Shown: positions 6,841 through 35,727 of the stretch, in pieces | How the letters are laid out: the number at the start of each line of letters is the position of its first letter | How positions within the stretch are numbered: position 1 is the first letter of the stretch | From: an uncultured Erysipelotrichaceae bacterium | Lineage (GTDB): Bacteria > Bacillota_I > Bacilli_A > RFN20 > CAG-826 | Direction of reading: 5' to 3' | NCBI GenBank assembly: GCA_902777015.1 | Contig: CACYSA010000024.1 | Location: 1-35,727, forward strand | DNA length: 35,727 bases | Notes under the pieces: generated by a model | What the model was told of the DNA's origin: nothing | Seen by the model: only the letters and a program-made list of their open reading frames with translations | The model's database searches: none | Position numbers and translations under genes: made by a program

Positions 6841-6846
6841 CATTTC

Positions 6847-6928
6847 GCCATCGCGATGAATGTTTGCGAACCAGGTCAGGACAGGAATGTAGCAGCCTTA
6901 AGTATCAATGTTCATGTGCGGTGGTTTT
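6847..6928 (+). ncRNA. ffs: Signal recognition particle RNA, small bacterial (4.5S-like) type
   Basis: RNA scaffold of the SRP, which binds Ffh and targets membrane proteins to FtsY and SecYEG. The conserved apical domain is recognisable: ggtcaggacaggaa, then agcagcc and taag. The flanks pair into one long hairpin: gccatcgcg near 6848 with gcggtggt near 6920, and atgaatgtttg with caatgttcat, giving an RNA of about 80 nt. No Alu-type 5' domain fits between the promoter and the hairpin, so this is the short form, not the long scRNA of Bacillus subtilis. A T-run follows the closing helix and may terminate it. The gene sits directly before tadA; in Bacillus tadA, scr and dnaX are neighbours. Confidence 0.92.
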
Positions 6929-6937
6929 TAAAAAAAT

Positions 6938-17177: not shown

Positions 17178-17214
17178 TTTACATAGATGACGGAATGTGA
17201 TTTAACATATTTTA
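17178..17214. repeat. Diverged repeat, left copy
   Basis: Similar to 17635-17670 over about 36 bp (shared core ggaatgtgat plus matching flanks, roughly 80% by eye). The pair flanks the mini IS element in direct orientation. It may be two fragments of one decayed gene. Confidence 0.6.
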
Positions 17215-17223
17215 GCAAGAAGT

Positions 17224-17262
17224 CCCCCACATCAATTTGATGGCTACCTCTATAGGTGGGGG
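17224..17262. repeat. GC-rich hairpin of IS605-type end
   Basis: Perfect 7-bp stem cccccac/gtggggg around a 25-nt loop. The bases before it (agcaagaag) match those before the right-end hairpin of the tnpB copies, and the bases after it (atgaac) resemble atgtcac. It is either the left end or the remnant of a second right end. Confidence 0.65.
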
Positions 17263-17327
17263 ATGAACTACTAATTATAAACATTTATAAAAACAAGTAA
17301 ATTTCTATATAAAAAAGTAGATATTTG

Positions 17328-17356
17328 TTGTGATTATATCAATAAATTGATATACT
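17328..17356 (+). promoter_or_regulatory. Promoter inside the mini IS element
   Basis: TTGTGA at 17328-17333, a 17-bp spacer, and TATACT at 17351-17356, pointing into the tnpB remnant. It probably once drove the transposon genes and could still transcribe the right end. Confidence 0.55.
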
Positions 17357-17385
17357 AATAATAGGACGACGGGATATGGAAATAG

Positions 17386-17547
17386 ACTTGTCCTACATGT
17401 GGATCTATTCATGATCGAGATCTAAACGCTGCGAAAAATATTCTAAGTAAGGGAACTACAATACTTACAAAGGATGGGACACATCCGGATAGCTTGTTTA
17501 TGCTGGGGTCATTAGACTCCTCGAGCAAGAAGCCCCCACTTCTTTAA
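17386..17547 (+). pseudogene. tnpB remnant (C-terminal zinc ribbon and RuvC-III part only)
   Basis: The last 54 codons of a TnpB RNA-guided nuclease: CPTCGSIHDRDLNAAKNI with the second CxxC of the zinc ribbon and the third RuvC Asp, ending SSKKPPLL. The frame is closed by a TAG directly upstream (17383), and everything N-terminal is missing, so no nuclease can be made. The fragment nearly matches the 3' end of the gene at 35331. Confidence 0.85.
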
Positions 17548-17554
17548 GTGGCGG
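17533..17554 (+). repeat. Right-end hairpin of the mini IS element
   Basis: Stem ccactt/aagtgg (17536-17541 with 17546-17551), extended by two more C-G pairs beyond a mismatch. It overlaps the tnpB stop codon, as is usual for IS605 right ends, where the omegaRNA scaffold maps. Confidence 0.75.
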
Positions 17555-17634
17555 AGCATGTCACTTAATTTGGTCAGTTGATATAGCGTCCTTAATTGCG
17601 ATGCTTCGATGCTGACTTTTTTATTGACATTGTA

Positions 17635-17670: not shown

Positions 17671-17794
17671 GATGATGTTGCCCATTATGGACTAGCAAAC
17701 TGGAATACCAGATTGACATCATCTTTTTATCTCCACTTTTGATGGAAATAGAAGGATGCTTAGTTTTACGATTGTTATAAATTTTGAAAGCCAT
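17636..17794 (-). CDS. Small ORF of 52 residues, unknown, probably a decayed gene
   Basis: The ATG at 17794 has an excellent ribosome site (taggaggtaaatt) and opens MAFKIYNNRKTKHPSISIKS, a basic N-terminus that reads like real protein. The frame closes after 52 codons. The +1 frame stays open beyond the stop (GKYNVNKKVSIEASQLRTL, continuing to about 17570), where the IS right end begins. This suggests an older, longer gene interrupted by frameshift and by the IS insertion. I do not recognise the family. Confidence 0.4.
   Translation of the reverse strand: MAFKIYNNRKTKHPSISIKSGDKKMMSIWYSSLLVHNGQHHLKIFNHIPSFR
17671..17728. other. Structured segment ending in a T-run
   Basis: Outer stem gatgatgt/acatcatc (17671-17678 with 17716-17723) encloses two small hairpins, ccat/atgg and ctgg/ccag (17700-17711), and is followed by ttttt. 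On the + strand it could be a terminator with a three-way junction. It also lies within the small - strand ORF, so it may be chance. Confidence 0.4.
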
Positions 17795-35314: not shown

Positions 35315-35345
35315 GTGACATACCCACCACTTAAAGAAGTGGGGG
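35315..35345 (-). mobile_element. Right end of an IS200/IS605-type element
   Basis: Hairpin ccactt/aagtgg (35327-35332 with 35337-35342), overlapping the tnpB stop, then atgtcac on the - strand ending at 35315. The boundary is inferred from where this copy and the one at 17564 diverge. The first bases outside on the - strand (acgttttaaacgctta) would be the guide of an omegaRNA. Confidence 0.7.
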
Positions 35346-35727
35346 TTTCTTGCTCGAGGAGTCTAATGACCCCAGCATAAACAAGCTATCCGGATGTGTC
35401 CCATCCTTTGTAAGTATTTCAATTCCCTTACTTAGAATATTTTTCGCAGCGTTTATATCTCGATCATGAATAGACCCACATTTAGGACAAACCCATTTCC
35501 TAATAGCGAGGTCTTTAGTGAGCGAGTTTTTATAAGAACATATAGAACATAATTGAGAAGAAGGATAAGTAGAAGGAACCTTTATTACTTTCCTACCATA
35601 CCAATTAGCCTTATAAATTAGCATAGCGACTAATCTAGACCAAGATACATCAGATATGTTTCTTGCTAATTTAGAATCACTCATCATGTCCTTTACTTTC
35701 AAATCTTCGATACAAATGATTTGGTTT
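35331..35727 (-). CDS. tnpB: TnpB RNA-guided endonuclease of an IS200/IS605 element, 5' part outside window
   Basis: The last about 132 codons; the frame is open to the window edge. Visible: RuvC-II IICIEDLKVKDMM with the catalytic Glu, the conserved SWSRLVAMLIYKA, zinc ribbon LCSIC and WVCPKCGS, and RuvC-III HDRDINAAKNI with Asp. It ends SSKKPPLL. No stop or frameshift is seen, so the protein may be active. TnpB cuts DNA guided by an RNA from the element's right end, which helps the transposon persist. A Met-like codon at 35702 is only an internal start. Confidence 0.9.
   Translation of the reverse strand, partial: NQIICIEDLKVKDMMSDSKLARNISDVSWSRLVAMLIYKANWYGRKVIKVPSTYPSSQLCSICSYKNSLTKDLAIRKWVCPKCGSIHDRDINAAKNILSKGIEILTKDGTHPDSLFMLGSLDSSSKKPPLL

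What the first reader, a model, noticed from the sequence alone, without database searches (positions are those of the whole stretch)
17214..17564. Mini IS605 that keeps a promoter and the omegaRNA-type right end but no transposase or TnpB
The element holds a promoter (17328-17356), the last codons of tnpB and the right-end hairpin, nearly identical to the copy at 35.3 kb. If transcribed it would give an omegaRNA-like RNA whose guide is the chromosomal sequence after 17564, usable by TnpB made from the other copy in trans. This may be a non-autonomous element or a tool for guided cleavage elsewhere.
Basis: partly seen in the sequence, partly recalled or inferred. Interest (0 to 1): 0.6.

Follow-up and report, generated by a model that had tools for sequence, protein, structure and literature searches.

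The report
Gene-less mini IS605 keeping its guide-RNA
A 359-base jumping element in a gut-type Bacilli genome has lost both of its genes but kept its two ends, its promoter and an intact copy of the RNA that would steer the TnpB DNA-cutting enzyme; a sister copy at an unrelated site in another species suggests that it moved in this stripped-down form.

Summary
It is the left end plus the last 187 bp of a tnpB-bearing IS200/IS605 element, fused by a ~1.0-kb internal deletion. No TnpA or TnpB is left. The right end is a real omegaRNA scaffold: 118 nt, 31 pairs, 98.9% of cells paired across 36 sequences, with covariation far above shuffled and slid controls. The mini folds the same way. A second copy with the same deletion junction and shared derived bases sits in another species at an unrelated site, so the mini probably moved as a mini. 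The two minis are identical over 120 bp of the omegaRNA region and differ at 22 places in the 226 bp before it (permutation p = 0.0009). Relatives carry the parents: tnpA+tnpB (1.76 kb) and tnpB-only (1.3-1.4 kb), same ends. The guide matches the element's own empty site, seen in a relative, and nothing else in the genome. So the best role is trans-mobilisation plus TnpB-assisted retention, not cleavage elsewhere. This is a PATE, a known kind. Transcription, TnpB loading and current mobility are not shown.

The parts
17201..17205 (+). TAM / TnpA target motif TTTAA; also the first five bases of the -10 box (TTTAAT in relatives) of a host small-RNA promoter
   Evidence: TTTAA precedes nearly every left end recovered; TTTAG at the G007 mini. 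Empty site TTTAA+TTAATTTAGTCAGTTG in G011:C5.
17206..17564 (+). Mini IS605 element (359 bp), no intact ORF
   Evidence: Ends defined by homology breaks against other copies; second copy of 358 bp in G007.
17223..17263 (+). Left-end hairpin (predicted TnpA recognition structure)
   Evidence: ssDNA fold -9.5 kcal/mol, z -2.07; arms conserved in other left ends.
17328..17356 (+). tnpB-type promoter TTGTGA-17-TATACT, overlapped by the palindrome ATATCAATAAATTGATAT (17336-17353)
   Evidence: Consensus match not above chance, but conserved in copies; palindrome found only in four copies of this IS family in the genome.
17374..17386 (+). Deletion junction; TAGGAA microhomology is present on both sides in full copies
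   Evidence: Alignment to the full copy on C19 and to the G007 mini, which has the same junction.
17378..17546 (+). Non-coding remnant of the tnpB 3' end
   Evidence: tblastn match to TnpB with 2 TAG and 2 TAA inside; PF07282 fragment with one stop.
17447..17564 (+). OmegaRNA scaffold (predicted)
   Evidence: Six helices, 98.9% of cells paired, 20 double-changed cells against 3.3 shuffled; mini folds as the 35.3-kb copy does; 0 differences between the two minis over 17432-17551.
17532..17557 (+). Right-end hairpin, last helix of the omegaRNA
   Evidence: Folds.
17565..17580 (+). Guide: 16 nt of host DNA after the element (TTAATTTGGTCAGTTG)
   Evidence: 16-nt guide length by analogy with ISDra2 (PMC8612924); no second TAM+guide site with <=3 mismatches in the genome.
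17178..17206 (+). Host promoter cut by the insertion: TTTACA-17-TTTAA|C (last base of the -10 box changed from T to C)
   Evidence: Comparison with intact units in G011:C5 and G008:C22.
17572..17620 (+). Displaced host small RNA with terminator-like hairpin, now downstream of the mini
   Evidence: Conserved repeat in relatives; RNA fold z -3.86.
35331..35727 (-). C-terminal 131 aa of TnpB and right end of a longer copy, cut by the contig end
   Evidence: PF07282 at E 4.9e-25.

Best explanation
It is a non-autonomous IS200/IS605 derivative of the PATE type. It arose by a ~1.0-kb internal deletion (probably at a TAGGAA microhomology) in a tnpB-bearing element. It keeps everything that acts in cis: the TTTAA target motif, left and right hairpins, the tnpB promoter and a complete omegaRNA scaffold whose guide is set by the flanking DNA. 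A TnpA from an autonomous relative with the same ends would peel and paste it after TTTAA (inferred from anatomy and from its presence at two unrelated sites). When excision leaves an empty TTTAA-guide site on one sister chromosome, TnpB made by a tnpB-bearing copy, loaded with the mini's own omegaRNA, would cut it, and repair from the sister would restore the mini (inferred). Shown: deletion structure, second copy at a different site, empty-site sequence, structured and conserved omegaRNA, existence of TnpA/TnpB relatives. Inferred: transcription, TnpB loading, cleavage, present-day mobility.
For: Left and right halves match the two ends of full copies. The same deletion and shared derived bases occur in G007 at an unrelated site. 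Empty site in G011:C5, syntenic on the right side with the same glycosyltransferase gene. OmegaRNA covariation and reduced third-codon variation in tnpB there (0.198 to 0.078). 120 bp without a difference between the two minis although non-coding. TnpA (PF01797, 1.6e-40) plus TnpB with the same ends and TAM in G014, with the same architecture in G021 and G030; TnpB related to ISDra2 TnpB 8H1J at 5.8e-73.
Against: No TnpA of the matching type was found in this genome or in G007, though both assemblies are incomplete. The one complete tnpB copy on C19 has an in-frame deletion after the second RuvC motif; intact halves are split over contig ends. Only one copy per genome and only two genomes: a small family. 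The identical 120 bp could come from gene conversion by tnpB copies rather than selection. The G007 copy has a weaker -10 (TATCCT) and a TTTAG motif.
Confidence: 0.72

Rival explanations
1. Dead remnant: two independent or inherited internal deletions that never moved as minis and have no function; conservation of the right end reflects recent origin or gene conversion.
For: Only two copies known; no matching TnpA in either genome; deletion derivatives are common in the family.
Against: Same junction and shared derived bases at unrelated sites in two species, which independent deletions would not give; uneven divergence, 22 differences in 226 bp then 0 in 120 bp.
Confidence: 0.15
2. TnpA-only MITE: mobile through its hairpins, with the omegaRNA as a passive passenger because right-end structure is needed for TnpA.
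For: TnpA needs only the end hairpins (established for IS608/ISDra2). PATEs are described as ends-only elements moved in trans (PMC7290912).
Against: The identical stretch extends ~100 bp inside the right-end hairpin, into helices that covary as RNA; the promoter/operator is kept too.
Confidence: 0.25
3. Domesticated guide: the mini's omegaRNA steers TnpB to another chromosomal or foreign target, or regulates the host small-RNA locus it interrupts.
For: It sits inside the -10 box of a host small-RNA promoter and its promoter points into that RNA.
Against: No second target with <=3 mismatches in the genome; the guide matches the self site by construction.
Confidence: 0.05

Closest known systems
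PATE-like element of Halanaerobium hydrogeniformans (PMC7290912)
   Same: IS605 ends-only element (271 nt) with left-end hairpin, last 58 nt of tnpB and complete right end; no tnpA or tnpB; proposed to move in trans
   Different: Keeps only 28 nt of left end; a single copy in one genome; no omegaRNA analysis in the passages read. Here the tnpB promoter is kept, the omegaRNA is tested by covariation and a second copy exists in another species
ISDra2 (Deinococcus radiodurans) TnpA/TnpB/reRNA (PMC8612924)
   Same: Right-end-derived ~150-nt RNA with 16-nt guide from the flank, pentanucleotide TAM, TnpB proposed to cut the donor joint; TnpB of the parent element is homologous
   Different: TAM is TTTAA rather than TTGAT; the mini encodes neither protein
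Autonomous IS605 of the same family in G014, G021, G030 (this work)
   Same: Same TTTAA motif, left end, right end and omegaRNA
   Different: 1.76 kb with tnpA and tnpB

Membership tests
IS200/IS605 (as a non-autonomous derivative) | Both ends homologous to those of a TnpA(Y1)-TnpB element | tested here: met
   Ends shared with the tnpA+tnpB element in G014:C147; TnpA hits PF01797 at 1.6e-40
IS200/IS605 (as a non-autonomous derivative) | Subterminal hairpins at both ends, no target duplication, insertion 3' of a fixed short motif | tested here: met
   Folds; TTTAA motif and empty site without duplication
PATE (palindrome-associated transposable element) | Short element with palindromic ends and no transposase | tested here: met
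   359 bp, no intact ORF
PATE (palindrome-associated transposable element) | Mobile in trans, more than one copy | tested here: inconclusive
   Two copies with the same junction at unrelated sites in two species; movement itself not observed and no matching TnpA in either genome
OMEGA (TnpB omegaRNA) | Conserved structured RNA ending at the right end, guide from the flank | tested here: met
   Covariation counts, fold of the mini
OMEGA (TnpB omegaRNA) | RNA is transcribed, processed and bound by TnpB and directs cleavage | not testable with these tools
   Needs RNA sequencing and biochemistry

The most novel reading that the evidence does not exclude
The mini is a guide-only parasite of TnpB: a transposable element of 359 bp under selection to keep a promoter and an omegaRNA so that TnpB from other copies homes it back into its own empty sites, so that RNA-guided retention works fully in trans.
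Probability: 0.4. Interest if true: 0.6.

Novelty: new member of a known kind. Interest (0 to 1): 0.42.

Why it matters
Whether TnpB helps copies other than the one that encodes it is, as far as I could check, an open point in IS605 biology. A gene-less element that keeps the guide RNA and its promoter, with a sister copy and an empty site available for comparison, makes trans-retention directly testable, and gives a compact natural omegaRNA (about 118 nt) for a TTTAA-type TnpB.

Tried and rejected
Rfam found no omegaRNA or small-RNA family in the region. A mini-specific 23-base pattern found no viral contig and only G007 among genome contigs. No useful match among plasmids or phages (one weak right-end match in an unannotated phage record). 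An idea that the retained tnpB fragment is translated was dropped (stops, no start). The first guess that the mini keeps the tnpB start codon was wrong: the tnpB start in the C19 copy lies downstream of the deletion start. The first guess that the cut host -10 box is TGTGAT gave a 12-nt spacer; TTTAAT with a 17-nt spacer fits the units compared. Paper searches for non-autonomous TnpB elements gave only the Halanaerobium and Haloquadratum PATE papers as direct precedents; the 2023 Nature paper on TnpB-driven transposon spread is not held.

Full report
WHAT IS THERE. The window is contig C24 of a 1.62-Mb, 82%-complete genome. A sister species in the same genus carrying the same element is a Bacilli MAG from a water-deer omasum (JAGAYY010000031.1). 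The mini's left part (17201-17386) matches the left ends of three other copies (C26, C37, C19; 77-84%) and its right part (17378-17564) matches the right ends of three copies (C24 at 35.3 kb, C19, C25; 92-93%). Alignment with the complete copy on C19 shows one internal deletion of about 1.0 kb; element lengths are 359 bp for the mini against 1331-1411 bp for the longer copies without tnpA and 1761-1763 bp for tnpA+tnpB copies. In full copies the sequences on the two sides of the junction share TAGGAA, so a microhomology deletion is likely (inference).

BOUNDARIES AND TARGET. Nearly all recovered left ends follow TTTAA. In G011:C5 the uninterrupted sequence reads TTTTAATTAATTTAGTCAGTTGATATAGCGTCC, which across the insertion point differs by one base from the window's flanks joined at TTTAA, and the downstream gene there is the same glycosyltransferase as at window 17887. 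So insertion was clean, after TTTAA, with no target duplication. The left neighbour gene differs, so the synteny is one-sided. The element is 17206-17564. The TTTAA is also most of the -10 box (TTTAAT) of a host small-RNA promoter (TTTACA-17-TTTAAT in the relatives), which the insertion changes to TTTAAC.

THE MINI HAS A SISTER. G007:C25:43943-44307 matches 17201-17566 at 93% with unrelated flanks and a TTTAG motif. It has the same junction, and both minis share bases that differ from the full copies in the alignment (for example GGGAACTACAATAC against GGGAATTGAAATAC). Independent deletion is therefore very unlikely; the simplest history is one deletion followed by movement as a mini. In 224 genomes of the family no further copy with this junction appeared (only the three best candidates per genome were scored, and a full mini should rank first).

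THE OMEGARNA. In 36 right ends from several genera the last 118 nt form six helices; 98.9% of cells are standard pairs (shuffled 96.2%), 20 cells have changes on both sides (shuffled mean 3.3; slid controls 0-7) and the covariation score is 0.108 (shuffled 0.058; slid 0.016-0.030). The clearest case is columns 128-133/138-143 with UA/GC and CG/GC/UG/AU exchanges. Because these sequences also code for TnpB, I checked third codon positions: mean variation falls from 0.198 upstream to 0.078 in the RNA region. The mini's 17447-17564 folds the same way as the copy at 35.3 kb (-37.5 and -38.9 kcal/mol, z about -2.9 for both). With the 16-nt guide added, the minimum-energy fold of the mini partly rearranges the right-end hairpin, a caution for this particular guide.

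SELECTION OR NOT. Between the two minis there are 22 differences in the first 226 bp and none in the next 120 bp (17432-17551); a random placement of differences gives such a run in 0.085% of trials. The region no longer codes, so RNA-level constraint is the natural reading, but conversion by tnpB copies, which are nearly identical there, is not excluded.

PARTNERS. Autonomous relatives with the same ends carry a Y1 TnpA (PF01797, 1.6e-40) and a TnpB (PF01385, PF07282); that TnpB matches ISDra2 TnpB 8H1J over most of its length at 5.8e-73. In the window's own genome TnpB N-terminal halves (C26, C37) and C-terminal halves (C24, C25) lie at contig ends with an overlap between C37 and C24/C25, so a full-length TnpB probably exists; the C19 copy lacks residues after the second RuvC motif. 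No TnpA of the matching type was seen in this genome or in G007.

MECHANISM. By the ISDra2 model (PMC8612924), TnpA excises the element from the lagging strand, leaving a donor joint of TAM plus flank; TnpB with right-end RNA cuts that joint and repair from the sister restores the element. The mini has every cis part of this cycle and neither protein, so the best reading is mobilisation and retention in trans. The guide has no other target in the genome with up to 3 mismatches, which argues against guided cleavage elsewhere.

KNOWN OR NEW. Gene-less IS605 derivatives are known as PATEs; a 271-nt one with the right end and the last 58 nt of tnpB is described in Halanaerobium (PMC7290912). From memory, not checked here, PATEs were also noted in Geobacillus in the 2023 work on TnpB-driven retention. 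This is a new, well-documented member. What is less usual is the kept promoter, the tested omegaRNA and the sister copy.

Noticed in passing
window 17679-17737 (+) and 17720-17794 (-); L127:1568-1861, L136-L144, G000:C31:11847-12125: Candidate RNA-protein module: a family of ~97-aa basic proteins without Pfam, NCBIfam or PADLOC match, in 7 of 16 genomes of the genus; at all nine near-full-length loci inspected the gene's 3' end is met convergently by a tiny promoter, a ~55-60-nt RNA that mostly folds as a three-way junction, and a poly-T. Sequences differ between loci but folds are alike. Looks like an RNA antitoxin with a toxin, unproven. The window holds the RNA and only 25 aa of the protein.
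   Followed up: partly
window 17565-17625; L104 (G008:C22), L044 (G011:C5), L105 (G002:C12), L125 (G004:C54): Tandem arrays of tiny transcription units (TTTACA-17-TTTAAT, ~50-nt hairpin RNA, poly-T) of several types; one pair of copies has a compensated outer stem (GTCAG/CTGAC and GTCGG/CCGAC). Not in Rfam. The mini sits in the -10 box of one unit.
   Followed up: partly
L061 (G002:C13), match 1501-1574: A 50-bp ultra-mini: left-end foot TTTAACATATTTTAGCAAGAA joined directly to the right-end hairpin, probably by deletion between the AGCAAGAA repeats of the two ends.
   Followed up: partly
window 17336-17353; L096, L097, L106 (G007): Perfect palindrome ATATCAATAAATTGATAT overlapping the tnpB promoter; in this genome only in four copies of this IS family, but also upstream of a different IS605 type in G007. 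Possible operator.
   Followed up: partly
G000:C19:23958-25052 (L016:1759-2853): TnpB of 364 aa with an in-frame deletion just after the second RuvC motif, so the only uninterrupted copy in the assembly is probably inactive.
   Followed up: no
L016 about 1700-1750: Full copies carry a strong hairpin-forming stretch (GGGATATAGGAATGG..CCATTTTTATATCCC) between promoter and tnpB start; the mini's deletion removes its 3' arm.
   Followed up: no
L093 and L094 (G004:C73, C119), 1-175: Two contigs begin with the same ~100-bp unrelated sequence followed by the last 74 bp of this right end: another element type using the same right end, or a contig artefact.
   Followed up: no
G000:C44:1-1700 (L063); G000:C8:10501-10542: A second IS605 type (left end AAACGGGAATCCTCGGTTGTTCAACTGCCGAG) with a broken tnpA; and a lone right-end relic on C8.
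   Followed up: no
window 6845-6930 (+): Bacterial small SRP RNA, 59.9 bits.
   Followed up: no
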